Shown here: positions 20,191 through 32,320 of the stretch, piece by piece
Position numbering within the stretch: position 1 is the stretch's first letter
Layout of the letters: each line of letters opens with the position of its first letter
Assembly: GCA_945860915.1 (NCBI GenBank)
Contig: CAMARR010000003.1
Coordinates: 124,001 to 188,000, forward strand
Direction of reading: 5' to 3'
DNA: 64,000 bases
From: Candidatus Kuenenia stuttgartensis
GTDB taxonomy: Bacteria; Planctomycetota; GCA-002687715; CAIWVZ01
Program-made: the position numbers and the translations under genes
The notes under the pieces: model-generated
What the model saw: only the letters and a program-made list of their open reading frames with translations
The model's database searches: none
Told to the model about the DNA's origin: nothing

Positions 20191-21524
20191 GTACATCTGA
20201 ATCGACGAACAAGGACCCCTTGTTGCTGCGTCATCTACCCGAGCGGTTGATTGACCGTCCTGACGTTGCCACGTTCGGACCAGGTCAGAGACTTTGGGAC
20301 CTCGTTCGCATCGGTGTCCTCGCTGCGCGACGGGGCCGTAGCAACTTCATGTTCCAACGCGCGGCGGGTTTGTCGTTCACCACGATGATCTCACTCATCC
20401 CTCTCGCGGTTCTGTTCTTCTCGTTCGTCGGAGTCTTGGGGGGCGGTGATCGCATCAACGAGTTCGTGCGGGAAAAGGTCTTCCCGATCGTCGCGCCCGA
20501 CTTCAAGCAGAATCTCATTCAGTGGATGGATGAGTACATTTCACCCACGGCGTTCAGACAGAACATCGTTGGTTGGACGAACCTGTTGGCCATCGTTGGA
20601 CTCATCGGTGCGTCGCTCCAGTTAGTCAGCACAGCCGAGCGTTACTTAAATCACATCTGGCAGACACGTGACGACCGCAGCTTCTGGCGTCGACTCACGA
20701 TCTTCTGGTTGGTATTGACCCTCAGCCCATTCGTGTTTCTCGCCATGATCCTGCTTGGCGAATGGGTCTTCTCGGAATCCTTCATAGGCGAAACGAGCCT
20801 CCCCCTTCTCTCTCGATCGCTGGCGATCGTCATCCCGGGCCTTGTCGGTGCGTTCGGATTCATGCTGATTTTCCGACTCCTTCCGAACGCCAACGTCGAA
20901 ACACGCCCCGCGATTCTGGGCGCGCTTGTCAGCGCTGCCCTCTGGGAAGCCGCTCGCCGAGGGTTCTTTCTATACATCCAACGTCAAGCCGGTGTGACCT
21001 CTTTCTATTCAAAGCTCGCTGCAGTTCCTTTGTTCTTAATCTGGATCTGGGTGACATGGGTCATCGTCCTTTTTGGCTCGGAATGTGCGCACGCATGTCA
21101 ACATTTGCCACGACTCTGGAGACAGTTTGTCCGGCCACTCCATGGAGGTTCCGTTTCCAAACCAGCGCTCGCGGTCGTGCTCCTTCGTAGGCTCCTGCCT
21201 GCCTTTCGCGGCGAGCGAGCCATTGAGCCAATCGACGACCACGCGTCGGCGATCAAGTGCAGTCCCGAGGATCTGCTTGAGATGGCTGAATGGCTCGTGA
21301 GCATCGACGTGCTGCTACCGGACCCCAAGATCCCCCGCTGTTTCCGAATCGCCCAAGATCCTAGCCACATCCGCCTGAGCGAGTTGGTCGAGCGCATTCT
21401 CGAACACGAGCACGGCATGGAACTCGCAAAAGGCGACGGCCCATTCGCGAAGGACATCCGACCCGCGTGGCAAGCAGCGATCCGCTCGTTCGGCAACCGC
21501 AGCCTCGCCGATCTTCGCGACTAA
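20187..21524 (+). CDS. YihY/BrkB-family inner-membrane protein
   Basis: RAAGLSFTTMISLIPLAVLFFSF, multiple TM helices, FFLYIQRQAGVTSFYSKLAAVPLFLIWIWVTWVIVLFGSE; probable TTG start overlapping the rhaM-like stop (TTGA). Confidence 0.85.
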   Translation: MSTSESTNKDPLLLRHLPERLIDRPDVATFGPGQRLWDLVRIGVLAARRGRSNFMFQRAAGLSFTTMISLIPLAVLFFSFVGVLGGGDRINEFVREKVFPIVAPDFKQNLIQWMDEYISPTAFRQNIVGWTNLLAIVGLIGASLQLVSTAERYLNHIWQTRDDRSFWRRLTIFWLVLTLSPFVFLAMILLGEWVFSESFIGETSLPLLSRSLAIVIPGLVGAFGFMLIFRLLPNANVETRPAILGALVSAALWEAARRGFFLYIQRQAGVTSFYSKLAAVPLFLIWIWVTWVIVLFGSECAHACQHLPRLWRQFVRPLHGGSVSKPALAVVLLRRLLPAFRGERAIEPIDDHASAIKCSPEDLLEMAEWLVSIDVLLPDPKIPRCFRIAQDPSHIRLSELVERILEHEHGMELAKGDGPFAKDIRPAWQAAIRSFGNRSLADLRD

Positions 21525-24500
21525 CCGCCGCCGAACAGTCCTCGCCTTTTCTTCGGAGCAGGTTTTGACTCAGGCTCTGGGATAACGGCGGGTCGCGACA
21601 CGGGCCGTGGCGAGCTTGGTGCCGATGTCGGAATCGGGGCGGGCGAAGGCGGTGGCTCCGTCCCTGGCAGTTTCGGGATTGGAATCGGGAATGACCGGGG
21701 CCGCTTGGCGGGTTGCGCTGGCTCGGGAGTCGGCGACGGTGGCGGCGCGATGACGCGCGGCGTCGGAACGGGAGTCGGCAATGTCCCTGGTGCGTCCTTC
21801 ACAGGTGGCTGCGGTGATGGAGTAGGCGGAATTGATGGGTTACTGCCCGACGGTGCCGGAGTTGGAGACGGCGGCGCGCTCTTTGGCGCAGGATTCGGAG
21901 CGGGTGGCTTCTTCTTGTCGATCCCTCCCAAAATTCCGCCGAGGATGCCCCCGCCCGAATTGCCACCCGTGACTTCACCGAGGAGCGCTTGCTTGGCAAG
22001 GTCAGCCAGAAGCCCCCCGACGTTGACATCGGGGTTCGATGTTGTCCCCTTCACCGGGAGCCTCAGCGTGTCGACGCGAAGCTTGCTTAGGAAAGGGAGT
22101 CTTGCGCGCAGGGCGTCGGTGACCGGAATCTCAAGATCAAGCGCCAATGTTCGATCGAGTCCTACCGAGCCCGTCCACACGAGATCGAGTCCCTTCACAC
22201 TCATGCGCAATGGAGAGTCGTACGAAAGTCGACCCTGACGAATGGTGAATGTAATGGGCTGTAGGCTCACTTCCGAAGCGCCAGTCCCAAGAAGTAGATC
22301 CGCGAGCTTCAGGAGCATCGTCGAGCCTTGCACCGCACCCTGTGAGAATCCCAGTCGCCCGGTACCGTCGATGCGGTCCTTGGGGAACTTTTCCCAACCG
22401 CCCGTGAGGTCGGCCTCCGTCAATTGCCCTGACACCGTGAGATCAAGGTTCGCGTCGATCAAACCGGTCAAGGTCGACCCGGCGCCGCCCGTGACGGCGA
22501 AGATCGGATTCACCATCGAGGCCAGCGGACTTAGCTGGCCGGTCGCCTGTGCTCCGGTTAACGCTGCCTTCAGCGAGGATCCCTTCGCGCCCGGCGCGAG
22601 CCCAAGCGAGGAGCTGATCGCCAAAGGGCCCCCGTTGAATTTGAGATCCCCCGTTGTATCGAGAGTTCCCTTGGTCCAGGTGGACTTCATCGTGCCGTCA
22701 AGAGTCAACGAACCCATCTGGATCGGCGCCAAGGCAATCGAAGTCGTCCCCGTTCCGGCGCGCAGAAGCCCGACGAAGTCCGTGCTCTGAACAGGTCCAT
22801 CAAGCGCCGCGCTGACATGACGTTTTCCGGTTCCGGTGACTGCAACATCCGCAAAGGCGGCGAGGACGACGCCGAGTCGGGTCGGCTCATAGTCCGCCGA
22901 GAGCGTGACGCCCTTGAAGGCCGGTTGGCTTGGGAGTCCGACGATCGCCCCCCGTACGGCCGCATCCATGAATGTCGACTTCAGAGAAATGTCATTGAGC
23001 AACAAGTCGTTGCTCATTTCGATGACGGATGCGTCGAAGACCAAATCAACGGACGGATCCGTCACGGTAATCGCTTTGCGTCCCTCAGCTTCTGGAACGG
23101 CAACGGTGAAATCCTTGACACTGACGCGCCCCGTGAGCTTGGTTAGCCCGGACGCGCCGCGCACGCCAAGCACAAGCGATGCTCTCCCTTGAGTCGTTGC
23201 GCCGCCCAAATCACCCAACCCGAGCTGCTCGAGCATCGGCTTTAGGTCGGCGTTCGCCGTGACATCAAAGTCGGCGAGGTCCGTCACGGACATAGGGACA
23301 CGGCCCTTCGCATCGAGTTTGACATGGGTCGAGTCCACACGAAGCGATGTCAAATCAATGCGTTGACGACCCGCCGCAAACGTCCCGCTCCCATCGAACG
23401 TGATCTGGACGTTCTTGTCCTTTACGACGCGGCCCTGCCCCTTGGTGTTCATGGGCATCGCGATCACGAGGTTCTGCGCACCAATGCGTCCCTTGAAGGC
23501 CGTCGCCTCGCCGCGCAGCTCGCCACCGACATCAAAGTCGATATCGGAATCAAACGCGAATCCTTCCGGAAGCGATCCTGTCATCGCGAGTAATGGCGCC
23601 GGGCGGAGCTTGCCACGAACCGCAACCTGTGCGGACTTTTCACTCCAGTCAGCGGTTCCGTTGATCTCGGCGCCTGCGCCCGATACCGCGAACTGGGGGA
23701 TCGCGAGTCGACGTGACGCTGGATCCCACGAGCCTGTCACGCTCATCCGGAAGCGAGGTTCCTTCACGTGACTTGGCTTCGCGCCGCTCACGGAAGGCAG
23801 AGTCACATCGAGGTCGGCGATTTCGACGCCAGCGGTGACATCTGCCCGGCCCGACACTCCTGTCGCCTTTATCGTTGCCGCCAACCGACCGGTCGGGCGC
23901 TCGTTTCCCGTCGTCACCAAGGTTCCGAGATCCGCGAAAATGCCGGCGATGTCCGCTGTCGCTGCTATCTCCATCGACGCGCCATCGAGTTGCGCTCCGT
24001 TGATGCCCCCCTTAGCCGTGATCGATCCATGTCGGAAAGTGATCTGCGATGGACGGAAGTCAACACGCTCTCTCCCGAGCGCGGTTTCGACCCCCATGTC
24101 GACGTCAATGATCACCGGTGAGTCATCAATCCGATCAGCGGACTGAAGCAGACCGAATGCTCGACCCGCCGTCATCGGCTTCACCGAGCCCTTGACGCGA
24201 AGCTGCGCCGATGTCCCTCGCAATGTCAGGCCACCCTCGAGTTCCGCGCCTCCGCCGCGAACGCTCCATTTGGAAATGTCCGCTGCTAAGGCAGCTCCGA
24301 GTGTCACGGCTCCTTCGGCCGTCACATCAAGGTCGAGCGGACCGAAGGACTTACCCTGTTGAGTCACTCTCAAGCCGCGAGTTGTGACGGTGGCACGAAT
24401 CGATGCCTTCTCAGTGGCGGTGATATCCGCATCGAGTTTGAATTTCCCCGCGAAATCGGCCGGAAGCACGGCTATCTGGCGGAGCTCCGCCGACAACGCA

Positions 24501-25906
24501 TCAAGGTCGCCGTCGGCCGTGACCTTCCCATCGCGGAACGAGCCCTTCTTCAAGTCGAACGCACCAACCACCGATGCACGGCACGAGGCGACCTGAATCT
24601 CACCCTTTGTGAGCGTAACGATGTCGCCATCGTGAGATCCGTCAATCATCGCGCTCAGATTGGCGAGCCCATTGAGACGTTTGCCTCCTGGCGTGCGGAC
24701 TTCCAGTCCGCTGCCCAGCAGATTCGCTGTCCACGCAGTCTGCGCAAGTGCTCCGCTCGTCACGGTGCCCTTGACGCTTCCAACGACTCGGACTTTGCCT
24801 GATGCTTGGACTCCATCCTTCGTTCCAAGTAACCCAGCGGCCGTCGCAAGGATCGACGCGACCTCTCCCTCAGCGCTGTAGCTGGTGACGAAGCTCGTGT
24901 CCGCACCCTGAAGCGCCGTTCTCGCTTCGACCTTGGCAGCAAGGGTGTCCTTGATGTCAAAAGTAATCAGCGCTTTGCCTGCTCCGAGTGGGTCGGATTC
25001 GCCTGAGTAGGAAAGGGTCAGCGTGGGGAGCTTCATGGGTCGCCCGCCAACTAGCGGGCCATCGATCTCGACCCCCGTCAGTCCAAGCGACCCGTCGCCG
25101 AGGAACGACATGGGCTGAGACAGGCTGATGTTCCCCTTCCCTTCGATTACGCCCTGAATTCGGGTCAATCCGGAGAAACTGCCAACGACTGCTGCAACCG
25201 ACTGAAGTTCTGTGCGCGGGATGTCAAATCTCATCTTGCCGCGCGGGCCGTTAGGTCCTGGGGTTAAGTCGCCCTCGAGCGTCCACGTCGCTCCGCCGAG
25301 CCGGAAGCTTGCCTTGCCGTTCGTAGCGCCACCGTTCTTGCCCGAGGCAAGCGTGGCGTCGAAGGCGTCAATCGCAGTCGTTGCGCCAAGTCTGTCCGTC
25401 CACACAACTTTTCCGCGCCGCACCGTCACGTCGAAGTCGGGCACAGCGGCTGGCCTTGATGCGGTGCTCTGCGCAGTAGCCGGAGCTGAAGTCTGGGTGA
25501 CGGCAGCACCCATTGGCTCTGCTTTCAGAAGTTCCATTAGGTCCACGACTGCCGTCTTGCCGACCGACGCGAGAATCTCGGGTGACTCAATATCTACCTT
25601 CGCACGAACCGCGCCCTTGATTGCTGAGGGCACATCGACGTCTGCCGTCACTGTTGCAATCCGCGCCTTCGTGTTTCCCGAAGAGTCCTTCACCTCGACA
25701 CCAGTCAAGGTGACGTGGCCTCCCCAGGTGAAGCTCAACGACTTCGCGGTGACCACTCCATTCAGCTTCTCATTGACTCCTGAAAGTGCGCGTGAAAGGA
25801 CGATGCCGGGCGCCCACAGCGGAATCGCCGCGATGACCAAGACGAACGCGACCAAGGCCACGAGGACCTTCTTTCCAAGACTCCAGCGGCGTTTCGGCGT
25901 TTCCAC
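21521..25906 (-). CDS. Very large AsmA/TamB-like protein with Pro-rich C-terminal tail
   Basis: Single N-terminal TM (KKVLVALVAFVLVIAAIPLWAPGIVL) followed by long repetitive beta-rich AsmA-like sequence; last ~150 aa are extremely Pro/Ser/Ala-rich (PPAPNPAPKSAPPSPTPAPSG...). Confidence 0.75.
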   Translation of the reverse strand: METPKRRWSLGKKVLVALVAFVLVIAAIPLWAPGIVLSRALSGVNEKLNGVVTAKSLSFTWGGHVTLTGVEVKDSSGNTKARIATVTADVDVPSAIKGAVRAKVDIESPEILASVGKTAVVDLMELLKAEPMGAAVTQTSAPATAQSTASRPAAVPDFDVTVRRGKVVWTDRLGATTAIDAFDATLASGKNGGATNGKASFRLGGATWTLEGDLTPGPNGPRGKMRFDIPRTELQSVAAVVGSFSGLTRIQGVIEGKGNISLSQPMSFLGDGSLGLTGVEIDGPLVGGRPMKLPTLTLSYSGESDPLGAGKALITFDIKDTLAAKVEARTALQGADTSFVTSYSAEGEVASILATAAGLLGTKDGVQASGKVRVVGSVKGTVTSGALAQTAWTANLLGSGLEVRTPGGKRLNGLANLSAMIDGSHDGDIVTLTKGEIQVASCRASVVGAFDLKKGSFRDGKVTADGDLDALSAELRQIAVLPADFAGKFKLDADITATEKASIRATVTTRGLRVTQQGKSFGPLDLDVTAEGAVTLGAALAADISKWSVRGGGAELEGGLTLRGTSAQLRVKGSVKPMTAGRAFGLLQSADRIDDSPVIIDVDMGVETALGRERVDFRPSQITFRHGSITAKGGINGAQLDGASMEIAATADIAGIFADLGTLVTTGNERPTGRLAATIKATGVSGRADVTAGVEIADLDVTLPSVSGAKPSHVKEPRFRMSVTGSWDPASRRLAIPQFAVSGAGAEINGTADWSEKSAQVAVRGKLRPAPLLAMTGSLPEGFAFDSDIDFDVGGELRGEATAFKGRIGAQNLVIAMPMNTKGQGRVVKDKNVQITFDGSGTFAAGRQRIDLTSLRVDSTHVKLDAKGRVPMSVTDLADFDVTANADLKPMLEQLGLGDLGGATTQGRASLVLGVRGASGLTKLTGRVSVKDFTVAVPEAEGRKAITVTDPSVDLVFDASVIEMSNDLLLNDISLKSTFMDAAVRGAIVGLPSQPAFKGVTLSADYEPTRLGVVLAAFADVAVTGTGKRHVSAALDGPVQSTDFVGLLRAGTGTTSIALAPIQMGSLTLDGTMKSTWTKGTLDTTGDLKFNGGPLAISSSLGLAPGAKGSSLKAALTGAQATGQLSPLASMVNPIFAVTGGAGSTLTGLIDANLDLTVSGQLTEADLTGGWEKFPKDRIDGTGRLGFSQGAVQGSTMLLKLADLLLGTGASEVSLQPITFTIRQGRLSYDSPLRMSVKGLDLVWTGSVGLDRTLALDLEIPVTDALRARLPFLSKLRVDTLRLPVKGTTSNPDVNVGGLLADLAKQALLGEVTGGNSGGGILGGILGGIDKKKPPAPNPAPKSAPPSPTPAPSGSNPSIPPTPSPQPPVKDAPGTLPTPVPTPRVIAPPPSPTPEPAQPAKRPRSFPIPIPKLPGTEPPPSPAPIPTSAPSSPRPVSRPAVIPEPESKPAPKKRRGLFGGG

Positions 25907-26225: not shown

Positions 26226-27254
26226 TCAGTTGCTGCAGTTGCCAGCGACGAACGTGACTGTGAAACTCTGGGCCACGAAAACCAGCCCCGTCGAAGGTTG
26301 GTAGAGGCCAGTCGAGAAGTAAAGGCTGAGGCCAATAATCTCGGGGATGTTCGGAAGATCAACGGGGACATGATTGAGTTGGCCACTTATCGTCGTAACC
26401 GAGAGAATGTCATAGAACGGGTAGCCAATGTCGTAGGTCGTCCCGCCGACCGTGGTCGGACCTGGGTTGAATGAAGCCACGAGACAGCCACCGCACCCAG
26501 TTGCGCCGGTGAAGTAGAGGTCCATATGGCACCCCGGGCTTGCCTGGCCCGTGGCATACGCCGTCGGGGCGCAGCTTCCGGTGACGCCAGCTTCTTCGCT
26601 GACGCCATTGTTCATTCCTTGGCCCTTGATGCCAGCTTGTGCGGTTCCGCCACCGCCACCCGATGCGAGCGAGTTGGCAAATGCCCCAGCGTTGATGAAC
26701 TGGGTTCCGGGACCCGAGACGTTGAAGACGAACGTAATGCTGTCGCCACAGTCATCGACCAAGTTCGCGCCTGGCGCGTCGGCACGGACGATGGCGTTGT
26801 GGTTGCCATTTGGGACATTCAGGCCCACGTTGAATGACCCAAAGCAGTTGAGTTTGCAGTTGTTCGGCTGGGGGCTGGTCGTGGTGTCGGCATCGAAGGA
26901 AAACGACCAGTTTGCCGCAGCGCCCGAGGCTGATGTCTGTGACACCAGAGTCATTCCGGTTACCGCAGGACGGGGCACATTGAAGCGCGCCTTGGTGATC
27001 TGAGGGGCCGCATACCCCGCGACGATCGGGGATGTGTTGTTGACGAGAACGGTGAGCTGCGCCAGCGACTTGTCGTAACTAAACAGCATCGACGCCGTGG
27101 TCTGCGTGCCGTTGCCGCCACCATTCGGGAGCTGTGCGCCAGAGCAGTTGGCCGTGCCAGCGCCGCCTACCTGCAACGACCATGTTGATATTTGTGCGAC
27201 CGCGACCGCCGAGGAGAGAGCAACCACACCTGCAAACTTTATGACCATTGACAT
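26226..27254 (-). CDS. Secreted protein, tandem paralogue copy A, unknown family
   Basis: Signal peptide MSMVIKFAGVVALSSAVAVAQ; near-identical architecture to the adjacent copy at 27592..28630. Confidence 0.75.
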   Translation of the reverse strand: MSMVIKFAGVVALSSAVAVAQISTWSLQVGGAGTANCSGAQLPNGGGNGTQTTASMLFSYDKSLAQLTVLVNNTSPIVAGYAAPQITKARFNVPRPAVTGMTLVSQTSASGAAANWSFSFDADTTTSPQPNNCKLNCFGSFNVGLNVPNGNHNAIVRADAPGANLVDDCGDSITFVFNVSGPGTQFINAGAFANSLASGGGGGTAQAGIKGQGMNNGVSEEAGVTGSCAPTAYATGQASPGCHMDLYFTGATGCGGCLVASFNPGPTTVGGTTYDIGYPFYDILSVTTISGQLNHVPVDLPNIPEIIGLSLYFSTGLYQPSTGLVFVAQSFTVTFVAGNCSN

Positions 27255-27591: not shown

Positions 27592-28630
27592 TCAGTTCGG
27601 GCAGGTGCCGGCGACAAACGTCACCGTGAAGCTCTGCGCGACGAAGACCAATCCCGACGACGGTTGGTAGAGGCCCGTCGAGAAGTAAAGGCTCAGGCCG
27701 ATGAGCTCTGGGATGTTTGGGATATCAACCGGAACCTGATAGAGCTGGCCGCTGCTCGTTGGCACCGAGAGGATGTCATAGAACGGATAGCCGATGTCAT
27801 AGGTAGTGTTGCCAACCGTGGTCGGGCCAGGGTTGAACGAAACAACCAAGCACCCTGCGCAGCCGGTCGCGCCGGTCATGTAGAGGTCCATGTGGCAGCC
27901 CGGGCTTGCTTGACCCGTGGCATAGGCGGTCGGGGCGCAGCTTCCGGTGACACCAGCTTCTTCGCTGACGCCGTCGTTCATGCCTTGGCCCTTGATGCCC
28001 GCTTGGGGCTTGCCGCCTGAACCGCCCGAAGAGAGCGAATTCGCAAAGGCGCCTGCGTTAATCCATTGGGTCCCGGGACCTGTCACGGAAAAGACGAACG
28101 TGATGCTGTCACCGCAGTCGTCGGCCGCGTTGAAGTCGGGGGCTGCCGAATTCACAATGGCTCGCGAGTTGCCATTGGGGTTGTTCAAGCCAACGCTGAA
28201 ACCGCCAAAGCAGTTGAGCTTGCAAGGATTCGGGGTGCTGCCAGAGGTGACGTCCGCGTCGAACGTGGAGGTCCATGTACTGGCAGAGGCGCCGGATGCA
28301 GAGGTCGACGAGAGGAGCGTCATTGCCGTGACGGCGGGGCGCGGGGCGCGGGGCGTTGAAACGCACGGCAGTGATTTGCGACGCCGCGTAGGACGCGACA
28401 ACGGGTGACGTGTTGTTCACAACCACCGTCAACTGAGATACTGACTTGTCGTAGCTGAACAGCATGGATGCGGTAGTCTGGGTGCCATTACCGCCACCGT
28501 TCGGGATCTGAGCTCCCGAGCAATTGGCAGTGCCGGCTCCGCCAACCTGCAACGACCATGTAGAAACTTGGGCAACAACAGCGGTCGATGCGAGAGCGAC
28601 GGCTGCAACGAATTTCGTGTACTTTGACAT
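27592..28630 (-). pseudogene. Secreted protein, tandem paralogue copy B, disrupted by +7-bp frameshift
   Basis: N-terminal half lies in ORF 28109..28765 (MSKYTKFVAAVALASTAVVAQ... from 28630) and C-terminal part in ORF 27592..28401; the frame break coincides with three tandem GCGGGGC units at 28334..28354. Confidence 0.85.
28334..28354. repeat. Tandem 7-bp repeat (GCGGGGC)x3
   Basis: Read directly: gcggggc gcggggc gcggggc; removing one unit restores NAPRPAVTAMTLLSSTSASGA, colinear with copy A NVPRPAVTGMTLVSQTSASGA. Confidence 0.97.
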
Positions 28631-28674
28631 GAACCGCCCAAGCGTCGCGTGTAGCCCCCATTCGAACAAACATA

Positions 28675-29958
28675 TTGCTGATCGTCGCCGATGACCTCGG
28701 CTGGGGCGACGTCGGCGCGAACGGTCAAACACGCATCCTGACGCCGGAAATCGATGGACTCGCACGATCAGGAACTCGCCTCACACAGGCATGGAGCGGC
28801 GCGCCTGTGTGCGCTCCCTCTCGATGCGTTCTTATCACCGGCCGCCACCTGGGGAATTCCCCGATCAGAGACAACATTGAAGTTCAACCTGAAGGACAGG
28901 CTCCGCTTCCTGCTGGCACTCCGAACCTCTTTTTCGCAGCAAAGACAAAAGGCTACAAGACGGCTTGCATCGGGAAATGGGGCCTTGGACCGCCGGGCTC
29001 CTCCGGAGACCCGTTGGCAATCGGAGTCGACCGATTCTTCGGCTTCAATTGTCAACGCCATGCGCACAACTACTTTCCCGAATGGCTGTACGATGATCGC
29101 GCGAAACGGCAACTTGGCGGCTTCGCGTATGCGCCGCAACTCATGCTCGATGAGAGCGTGAAGTTCATTGAGGTCAACCGCGAGCGTCCGTGGCTCCTCG
29201 CTTTTACGAGTCCCCTGCCACACTTGGCTCTTCAGGTGCCCAGTACAACTCTTGAGCGTTACAGAGGTGCATTCCCGGAGACGCCGTACGACGGCAAGCG
29301 TGGCTACCGGCCCCACCCAACGCCTCGCGCCGCATATGCAGCCATGGTCAGTTACCTCGACGATTCCGTGGGCACCTTACTGCGAGCACTTGATCGCACG
29401 GGCCAAGCATGCAATACACTCGTCATTTTCACCAGCGACAATGGAGCGACGTACACGGGAGGAGCCGACACCACCTACTTCAATTCAACCGGCGGTCTCC
29501 GCGGATTCAAGGGCAGTGCCTACGAGGGTGGCCTAAGAGTGCCCCTGATCATGCGTTGGCCCGGTCGCATCGCGGCCGGAGCGACGTCAGATATTCCGAC
29601 AGCGTCCTACGATCTCTGGCCCACGATCGCAGCCGCGACCGGGATTCCGGCGCCACCCCAACCCGACGGCCAAAGCCTTCTCGCGCAACTTCGTGATTCA
29701 ACGGCCGTTGCGCCAGACCGACCCATCTTCGTCGACTTCGCGGGATATGGAGGCTGGATCGCGGTTCGCGAGGGACGTTGGAAAATCGTCCGAAACGGCA
29801 CCAACAAGCGTCCCGACGGGCCTTTCGAGCTCTTTGACCTCGAAACCGATCCGTCTGAGCGAAGTAACGCTGCGGCTCTTCACCCCGAGATTGTTGAGCG
29901 GCTTGCGAAGTTTGCAGCTAAGGAATGCGCGCGCGCCAAAACCGCCGCTGCACACTAA
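28675..29958 (+). CDS. Sulfatase (arylsulfatase-type), N-terminus atypical or truncated
   Basis: LLIVADDLGWGDVG metal site, CxPxR motif APVCAPSRCVLITGRH, GYKTACIGKWGLG, TSDNGATYTGG. Codons upstream of TTG 28675 continue the family consensus (PIRTNI|LLIVADDLG) back to a stop at 28630, with no ATG/GTG. Confidence 0.85.
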   Translation: MLIVADDLGWGDVGANGQTRILTPEIDGLARSGTRLTQAWSGAPVCAPSRCVLITGRHLGNSPIRDNIEVQPEGQAPLPAGTPNLFFAAKTKGYKTACIGKWGLGPPGSSGDPLAIGVDRFFGFNCQRHAHNYFPEWLYDDRAKRQLGGFAYAPQLMLDESVKFIEVNRERPWLLAFTSPLPHLALQVPSTTLERYRGAFPETPYDGKRGYRPHPTPRAAYAAMVSYLDDSVGTLLRALDRTGQACNTLVIFTSDNGATYTGGADTTYFNSTGGLRGFKGSAYEGGLRVPLIMRWPGRIAAGATSDIPTASYDLWPTIAAATGIPAPPQPDGQSLLAQLRDSTAVAPDRPIFVDFAGYGGWIAVREGRWKIVRNGTNKRPDGPFELFDLETDPSERSNAAALHPEIVERLAKFAAKECARAKTAAAH

Positions 29959-29974
29959 GATTCCTTGGTGCCCC

Positions 29975-32320
29975 ATGCACCAACGTGAAACCACATCTCT
30001 CGAGCTGGTCGCCGTTCTGATCCTACTATGGACTGGGTCGTTCGTGTCTATCGCGCAACAGCCCGCCGCGTCCGACACGTTCGAAAAGGAAGTTCGCCCA
30101 CTCTTCGCAACACACTGCGTGTCTTGCCACGGTGGTGAGAGCCCCGACGCCGGACTCGATTTCACGTTCGCCCGCGGTGGCATGCCGACCTCCGATGCGG
30201 GGGTGGCGGTTGTTGACAGAAAGGAACCGAACAAGAGTCGGATACTCAAGGCAATTTCCTACGCGGACCCCGACCTCCGTATGCCACCGGACGGACGGCT
30301 CCCCGACGCGGCAATCGCTGCATTCACGGCGTGGGTTGGCTCGGGGGCCTATACACCACCTCCCACGGCCATGCCGCCTCCCAAAGCCACCTCGCGACCC
30401 GAAGGGGTCGGCGATCACTGGGCGTTCCAACCCCGAAGCAAACCAGCACTCTCGTCAACTTGGATTGACGACGCGATCGACATCAAGCTCAGAGAGCGTG
30501 GTCTCACTCGGAACCCGGAGGCGGACCGCCGCACGTGGATTCGGAGAGTTACGTTCGACCTCACTGGCCTGCCTCCAACGGTGCAGGAAATCTCAGCGCT
30601 CCTCGATGACACGTCACCAGACGCGCCAGCGCTCGTCGTGGACCGACTCCTCGCGTCACCGGCTTATGGGGAACGCTTCGGACGCAAGTGGCTCGACGTT
30701 GCGAGGTATGCGGACTCGAATGGCCTCGACGAGAATCTCGCCATCGCGAACGCATGGCGATACCGGGACTGGGTGGTTCGCGCCATCAACAGTGATCTCC
30801 CGTACGACCGATTCTTGACTCTTCAGATTGCAGGTGACCTCGCTGGCGGCGAAGGCGAATCAGATCGCGATCGTCGAGACCGCCTCATCGCCACAGGCTT
30901 CTTGGCGATCGGACCCAAGATGCTCGCCGAACAGGACAAAGAGAAACTCCGGATGGACACCGTCGACGAACAAGTTGACGTCGCGTCCAAAGCCTTCCTC
31001 GGACTAACCGTCGCGTGCGCCCGCTGCCACGACCACAAATTTGATCCTATATCGACAGAAGACTATTACGCGATGGCGGGCGTCTTCCGTTCAACGAAGT
31101 CCTTCGCCAACCTCGCATTCGTTTCTCGCTGGAATTCACATGATCTTTCGAACAAAGAAGAGATCGACGCGCGGGCAACGTGGGACCGGGAACACACCAT
31201 CAAGGAGGCGGCACTGCGATCCGCTCATGCCGCCACCCTTCGTTCACTGCTCCTCCCGTCATCTCGACTGAAAGCCAACATTGCCGTGGGCGCCGCGAGA
31301 CGATCTGAGTTGGCGGCCCATGATGTACGCCGGCCTCCGCCGGCTGAACAAGCGCCTGGAGTTGCTGAAGGCGAGGTGGGCAATGTTGCAGTTCATTTGC
31401 GCGGCAGCCACCTCAGTCTTGGTGCATCTCGCATTGCACGCGGGCCACTTGCCCTTTGGGACGACTCGCTCAGCCGGCCCGAGATCCCGCCGTCGAGTTC
31501 TGGGCGCCTCGCCCTCGCGCAGTGGATGACCGATCCGCGACATCCTCTCGTGGCGAGAGTCGCCGCCAATCGAGCGTGGGCTGCGTTCTTTGGAACGGGG
31601 CTCGTTCGAACTCCATCGAACTTCGGACTGCGTGGCGAGACTCCGACACACCCAGAGCTCCTCGATGCACTCGCGGATCACCTCGTTGCGCACAAATGGT
31701 CGATGAAGTCGTTGCATCGAAGCATCGTATTGTCCGCCACGTACCGTCAGGCGACTGCGACGGTCATCGACGAGCGCGATCCGGATCATCGGTGGCTGGC
31801 AGGATTCCCGCGGCGCCGACTCGATGCCGAGCAGCTTCGGGACGCCTACCTCAGTTACTCAGGCGAACTGGACTCGACACGGGGTGGATCGCTTCTCGAT
31901 GTCGGTGAGGGCGACTATGTGACCAATGATCAATCGCAAGATAAGGGTCGCTACGACCTGCCACGACGCACGCTGTATCTGCCCGTTATTCGCAACGCAG
32001 CCTACGACTATCTAACGACGTTTGACTTTGGAGATCCCTCGCTCCCGATGGATGGGCGCCCGACGACCATCGTCCCAGCGCAAGCGCTCTGGCTTCTGAA
32101 TTCTCCCTTCGTCCAGGCCCGATCGTCGGCTCTCACTGCGTGGGCCACCAAGTCCGCCGATACAACAGCCGCGCGCATCTGCGCGCTGTACGAACGCGTC
32201 ACCGGTCGCCTGCCCAATCCGGACGAGTTCCGGCGCGCGGAGGCCTACCTCCAAGATGCGCCTCTCGATCGCTTTGTCCGAGTCCTCTTGGCGTCAGATG
32301 CCGCGATCTTTTTGAAATAG
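29975..32320 (+). CDS. Planctomycete PSD1 domain-containing protein (cytochrome c-type plus DUF1549 plus DUF1553)
   Basis: FEKEVRPLFATHCVSCHGGESPDAGLDF (CxxCH); WLDVARYADSNGLDENL (DUF1549); SGRLALAQWMTDPRHPLVARVAANRAWAAFFGTGLVRTPSNFG (DUF1553). ATG at 29975. Confidence 0.92.
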   Translation: MHQRETTSLELVAVLILLWTGSFVSIAQQPAASDTFEKEVRPLFATHCVSCHGGESPDAGLDFTFARGGMPTSDAGVAVVDRKEPNKSRILKAISYADPDLRMPPDGRLPDAAIAAFTAWVGSGAYTPPPTAMPPPKATSRPEGVGDHWAFQPRSKPALSSTWIDDAIDIKLRERGLTRNPEADRRTWIRRVTFDLTGLPPTVQEISALLDDTSPDAPALVVDRLLASPAYGERFGRKWLDVARYADSNGLDENLAIANAWRYRDWVVRAINSDLPYDRFLTLQIAGDLAGGEGESDRDRRDRLIATGFLAIGPKMLAEQDKEKLRMDTVDEQVDVASKAFLGLTVACARCHDHKFDPISTEDYYAMAGVFRSTKSFANLAFVSRWNSHDLSNKEEIDARATWDREHTIKEAALRSAHAATLRSLLLPSSRLKANIAVGAARRSELAAHDVRRPPPAEQAPGVAEGEVGNVAVHLRGSHLSLGASRIARGPLALWDDSLSRPEIPPSSSGRLALAQWMTDPRHPLVARVAANRAWAAFFGTGLVRTPSNFGLRGETPTHPELLDALADHLVAHKWSMKSLHRSIVLSATYRQATATVIDERDPDHRWLAGFPRRRLDAEQLRDAYLSYSGELDSTRGGSLLDVGEGDYVTNDQSQDKGRYDLPRRTLYLPVIRNAAYDYLTTFDFGDPSLPMDGRPTTIVPAQALWLLNSPFVQARSSALTAWATKSADTTAARICALYERVTGRLPNPDEFRRAEAYLQDAPLDRFVRVLLASDAAIFLK

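What the first reader, a model, noticed from the sequence alone, without database searches (positions are those of the whole stretch)
27592..28630. Frameshift by expansion of a 7-bp tandem repeat in a secreted paralogue
(GCGGGGC)x3 at 28334..28354 shifts the frame by +7. With two units the reading frame matches paralogue A exactly across the junction (NAPRPAVTAMTLLSSTSASGA vs NVPRPAVTGMTLVSQTSASGA), and the rest of the gene is intact. This is a very recent mutation, a sequencing/assembly artefact, or a slippage-based ON/OFF switch for a secreted protein.
Basis: seen in the sequence. Interest (0 to 1): 0.68.

Follow-up and report, generated by a model that had tools for sequence, protein, structure and literature searches.

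The report
Young 7-bp frameshift in duplicated gene
In an uncultured planctomycete, one of two neighbouring copies of a gene for a secreted protein is knocked out of frame by a third copy of a 7-letter repeat; the break is so fresh that the rest of the gene is unspoiled, and it most likely reflects an ordinary recent mutation (or an assembly error) rather than an evolved on/off switch.

Summary
(GCGGGGC)x3 lies at 28334-28354 (22 bp perfect to 28355), and gene B (27592-28630, minus) changes frame exactly there. B is one of two tandem paralogues. Two congeneric planctomycete MAGs have a single intact copy in the same place (DUF748 protein | secreted protein | sulfatase). The paralogues are old (dS at least 1.3). 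B has the same low dN on both sides of the repeat (0.135 and 0.138), all its cysteines and host-like codon usage in both halves, so B was a working gene until very recently, at least as far as this assembly shows. The repeat is absent from A and from both relatives. Among 1.39 Mb of this genome it is the only heptamer with three units, and long simple repeats are nearly absent, so there is no sign of a contingency-locus system. Three units is the bare survey minimum; known phase-variable heptamers of H. influenzae have 13-38. A second fresh frameshift, in an MBOAT gene on the same contig, shows that such lesions, or consensus errors, recur in this assembly. Best reading: a slipped-strand duplication from two to three units, a recent or still segregating loss of function; assembly error is the main rival. 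An ON/OFF switch is not excluded but weakly supported.

The parts
28334..28355 (+). perfect tandem repeat (GCGGGGC)x3 plus one base; on the coding (minus) strand GCCCCGC x3; site of the frame change
28355..28630 (-). N-terminal part of gene B in frame 0: signal peptide and first 92 codons, MSKYTKF...AVRFN (base 28355 both ends this part and matches the repeat)
   Evidence: 78% identical to paralogue A
28109..28333 (-). out-of-family tail of the frame-0 product, ending at the stop 28109; this would be the end of the translated product of the three-unit allele (173 aa in all)
27592..28333 (-). C-terminal part of gene B, open and conserved in the other frame (VTAMTLLSS...TCPN), all 8 family cysteines kept
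26226..27254 (-). paralogue A, intact, 342 aa, secreted, no Pfam or NCBIfam family; has no repeat at the corresponding site
28320..28374 (.). imperfect inverted repeat (CATTGCCGTG / CACGGCAGTG) that would place the tandem repeat in a hairpin loop; a possible stimulus to slippage, only weakly unusual (z about -1.7)
28633..29958 (+). divergent sulfatase (PF00884), neighbour conserved in relatives; here without the N-terminal signal region
21521..25906 (-). DUF748 (AsmA-like) protein, the other conserved neighbour

Best explanation
Gene B encodes a secreted protein that was kept by purifying selection, next to its tandem paralogue A, for a long time. By chance its codons for A-P-R-P-A came to read GCCCCGC GCCCCGC. 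Slipped-strand mispairing at this all-GC, two-unit repeat added a third unit (+7 bp) and threw the rest of the gene out of frame. The three-unit allele makes a 173-aa product (signal peptide, 92 family residues, then nonsense), so it is a loss-of-function allele, very young or still segregating in the population. It is probably tolerated because A is intact. Shown: the repeat, the frame change, the intact remainder, purifying selection on both sides, single intact copies in relatives. Inferred: slippage as the mechanism, direction 2 to 3, absence of function, tolerance through A.
For: Repeat and frame change coincide. A versus B: dN 0.135 before and 0.138 after the repeat, dS 2.96 and 1.31, omega 0.05 and 0.10; nonsynonymous/synonymous counts do not differ between the parts (Fisher p 0.40). 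After the repeat, 9 changes are derived on A and 12 on B (binomial p 0.66). Codon scores: B N-part 0.125, B C-part 0.10 in its own frame, against -0.2 to -0.3 out of frame, as in other genes. All 8 cysteines kept. A, G001 and G002 lack the repeat and are in frame at this site. The two congeneric genomes keep one intact copy in the same neighbourhood. Only heptamer triple in 1.39 Mb.
Against: No reads and no second strain, so a 7-bp assembly error gives the same picture. A second fresh-looking frameshift on this contig (MBOAT, C3 about 23525) could mean consensus errors. dS is near saturation, so 'very recent' is relative to an old duplication: roughly, B can have been free of selection for no more than a few percent of that time.
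Confidence: 0.6

Rival explanations
1. Assembly or consensus error: the organism has an in-frame gene, and the third unit was added by the assembler or by sequencing error in a 100% GC stretch.
For: The remainder of B shows no decay at all, which is what an error predicts. The source genome is an unfinished draft of 23 contigs at 86.85% completeness. A second frameshift in an otherwise intact MBOAT gene lies at a TTTTTCC tract on the same contig, while both relatives have an uninterrupted MBOAT frame. GeneTack authors expect homology-confirmed singleton frameshifts to be mostly sequencing errors (PMC3711429).
Against: A whole-unit +7 change at a perfect tandem repeat is the signature of replication slippage, and short-read sequencing rarely makes 7-bp insertions (own knowledge). 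A 22-bp repeat is shorter than any read, so it need not confuse an assembler. Only two homology-supported frameshifts emerged in 1.39 Mb, although the scan finds only about 30% of planted ones.
Confidence: 0.28
2. Phase-variable locus: slippage between two (ON) and three (OFF) units reversibly switches a secreted protein.
For: Right architecture: perfect heptamer repeat inside the coding sequence, unit not a multiple of three, secreted product, intact gene beyond it. Three units is the inclusion threshold used for heptamers in the H. influenzae survey (PMC2651432). An imperfect inverted repeat flanks it.
Against: Only three units; the heptamer repeats known to phase-vary in H. influenzae (hmw1A/hmw2A promoters) have 13-38 copies in the strains quoted there (PMC2651432). 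The repeat is not conserved in A or in two congeners. No other heptamer triple and hardly any other simple repeats in 1.39 Mb, so no class of contingency loci. A two-unit repeat would slip rarely.
Confidence: 0.1
3. Recoding: ribosomes shift +1 at the proline codons (GCG CCC CGC contains CCC-C) and make the full-length protein from the three-unit allele.
For: Both frames are open across 28109-28401; CCC-C is a +1-prone word for proline tRNAs (own knowledge); the C-part is under purifying selection.
Against: Nothing at this site is conserved in A or in relatives; no stop or other known stimulator of +1 shifting; selection on the C-part is explained by the gene having been intact until recently.
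Confidence: 0.02

Closest known systems
Slipped-strand frameshift pseudogenes and segregating indels at short tandem repeats in bacteria
   Same: +1 unit of a perfect short repeat, frame lost at the repeat, rest of gene intact, a paralogue present
   Different: nothing evident
Heptanucleotide phase-variable loci of Haemophilus influenzae (hmw1A/hmw2A; PMC2651432)
   Same: heptamer tandem repeat linked to a secreted or surface protein
   Different: there 13-38 units and in the promoter; here 3 units, inside the coding sequence, not conserved, in a genome nearly without other simple repeats
GeneTack singleton frameshift genes (PMC3711429)
   Same: a single, non-conserved frame transition validated by homology, which that study attributes to sequencing error or recent indel
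   Different: here it coincides with a tandem repeat

Membership tests
Recent frameshift (loss-of-function) allele | frame interrupted relative to intact homologues | tested here: met
Recent frameshift (loss-of-function) allele | no further decay beyond the lesion | tested here: met
   dN and omega similar on both sides, no further stop or indel
Recent frameshift (loss-of-function) allele | allele really present in the organism (reads or second strain) | not testable with these tools
   no reads held; relatives are other species
SSR-mediated phase-variable (contingency) locus | tandem repeat with unit not a multiple of 3 in the coding sequence | tested here: met
SSR-mediated phase-variable (contingency) locus | number of units well above chance and high enough for frequent slippage | tested here: inconclusive
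   3 units: expected 0.08 in 1.39 Mb, at the survey threshold, but far below the 13-38 copies given for hmw loci
SSR-mediated phase-variable (contingency) locus | repeat kept at the locus in relatives or paralogues | tested here: not met
   A, G001 and G002 have no repeat at the site
SSR-mediated phase-variable (contingency) locus | unit number varies between cells or strains | not testable with these tools
   no reads, no second strain of this species
Programmed ribosomal frameshifting | conserved shift site in homologues | tested here: not met
   homologues are in one frame and lack the site

The most novel reading that the evidence does not exclude
A low-frequency, newly born slippage switch: the two-unit repeat in B, formed by synonymous drift, lets a planctomycete population hold ON and OFF forms of a secreted protein backed up by an always-on tandem paralogue.
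Probability: 0.08. Interest if true: 0.5.

Novelty: new member of a known kind. Interest (0 to 1): 0.2.

Why it matters
As a young or segregating frameshift, or an error, it mainly warns that this gene pair should be annotated as one intact and one interrupted copy, and that unit counts in reads should be checked before building on it. If two- and three-unit alleles coexisted, it would be an early-stage repeat switch in a planctomycete, a group for which one search of the paper library showed no repeat-switch study.

Tried and rejected
Phase variation as a genome-wide habit: rejected, since the SSR survey of 1.39 Mb found no other heptamer triples and no long di-, tri- or tetramers. Old pseudogene: rejected by dN/dS and relative-rate counts. 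Programmed frameshift: rejected, site not conserved. Function by family: no Pfam, NCBIfam or convincing PDB match for A. AlphaFold model of A from four sequences is too poor to use (mean pLDDT 41), so no fold search was run. First genome-contig scan with A alone found nothing; with the alignment it found two relatives whose contig lengths equal those of G001 and G002. Order and class searches reached only 12 genomes. First version of the frameshift scan used thresholds that were too strict and found nothing; after rescaling it gave 24 candidates, of which I accept two, B and MBOAT; others that I inspected look like overlapping or adjacent genes, and not all were inspected.

Full report
What is there. 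The + strand carries GCGGGGC three times at 28334-28354, with one more matching base at 28355. On the minus strand gene B starts at ATG 28630 with a signal peptide (MSKYTKFVAAVALASTAVVAQ) and reads the family sequence through 92 codons to ...AVRFN. It then runs through the repeat and on in nonsense to a stop at 28109, a 173-aa product. The family sequence resumes directly after the repeat in the neighbouring frame and ends at 27592 with no other stop or indel that breaks the frame. The frame change therefore coincides with the repeat, and its size fits one 7-bp unit.

Is it more than chance? The two-unit 14-mer does not occur elsewhere in the window or in shuffles. I assembled 1.39 of the 2.37 Mb of the source genome from stretches. 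It holds 76 places with at least two perfect heptamer units and one with three, this one. A Markov simulation of that length gives 101 and 0.08. H. influenzae Rd is similar at the two-unit level (126 at two units, none at three; PMC2651432). Two-unit heptamers are thus unremarkable; the third unit is an event that needs an explanation.

Surroundings. B sits head to tail with paralogue A (26226-27254), about 80% identical in protein. The window's pair is therefore a duplication in this lineage or a loss in theirs. Neither A nor the relatives have a repeat at the corresponding site: AATGTGCCCCGTCCTGCGGTA in A, AACGTTCCGACGGAGGCGGTC and AACGTTCCGACCGAAGCGGTG in the relatives. The repeat arose in B from its own codons.

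How old is the break? Between A and B, dN is 0.135 before and 0.138 after the repeat; dS is about 3.0 and 1.3 (near saturation), omega 0.05 and 0.10. Where both outgroups agree, the part after the repeat shows 9 changes on A and 12 on B (p 0.66). All eight cysteines of that part are kept. Codon usage in both halves of B is that of the genome's genes, each in its own frame. A back-of-envelope estimate (inference): if B had evolved without constraint for more than a few percent of the time since duplication, its dN would visibly exceed what is seen. B was a working gene until very recently, or still is and the assembly is wrong.

Real or artefact? No reads are held and no second genome of the species, so this cannot be settled here. 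For a real event: a whole-unit change at a perfect GC-only repeat, the classic product of slipped-strand mispairing, perhaps helped by a flanking imperfect inverted repeat (weak). For an artefact: a codon-usage scan for frame switches gave a second case that I accept, an MBOAT acyltransferase on the same contig (C3 about 23525, at TTTTTCC); its Pfam match starts at the switch and its relatives have uninterrupted frames. The scan recovers about 30% of planted frameshifts (a lower bound, since some of the test ORFs are not genes), so there may be several per megabase. That is compatible with some real pseudogenes or with modest consensus error. I give 0.6 to a real recent mutation and 0.28 to an artefact.

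A switch? The architecture would permit it, but three units is only the threshold for listing a heptamer in the H. influenzae survey. The hmw loci, with heptamer repeats known to phase-vary, have 13-38 copies in the strains quoted there, in promoters (PMC2651432). Contingency repeats usually come as a class and are kept in relatives (own knowledge); here there is neither. Any two-unit repeat in any gene could be called a switch on this evidence. I give it 0.1. The GeneTack study treats a lone, unconserved, homology-validated frame transition as sequencing error or recent indel (PMC3711429), which fits.

Verdict. A correct and careful observation of an ordinary kind of thing: a very young, possibly segregating frameshift by one repeat unit in one of two tandem copies, or an assembly error. 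Low interest unless reads show mixed unit counts.

Noticed in passing
window 28631-28675: The divergent sulfatase lacks the roughly 50-residue N-terminal region with signal peptide that its relatives have; its first conserved residues lie only about 45 bp from B's start codon, against roughly 240 bp in G001. An in-frame TGA near 28631 bars extension. The shared promoter region seems to be missing.
   Followed up: partly
L007:5314 (+) and L008:9495 (-): A 20-bp sequence GACAAAAGATCACATCCCGA upstream of the secreted gene is identical in the two congeners, although the genes are quite diverged, and absent (up to 4 mismatches) from the window contig; a possible divergent promoter or operator.
   Followed up: partly
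window 29549-32317: The PSD1-type cytochrome gene aligns to its G001 relative in two blocks with about 190 residues of the relative missing in between (residues 485-673), in frame.
   Followed up: no
G000:C3 about 23525 (L011:2805-4453): An MBOAT acyltransferase gene is split in two frames at a TTTTTCC tract, while both congeners have an uninterrupted frame: a second fresh frameshift or consensus error in the same contig.
   Followed up: partly
G000:C2:128963-129017: A 15-bp unit (CACCCCGGCAATCAG) repeated 3.7 times perfectly, the longest perfect tandem array with units of 4-15 bp found in the 1.39 Mb surveyed.
   Followed up: no
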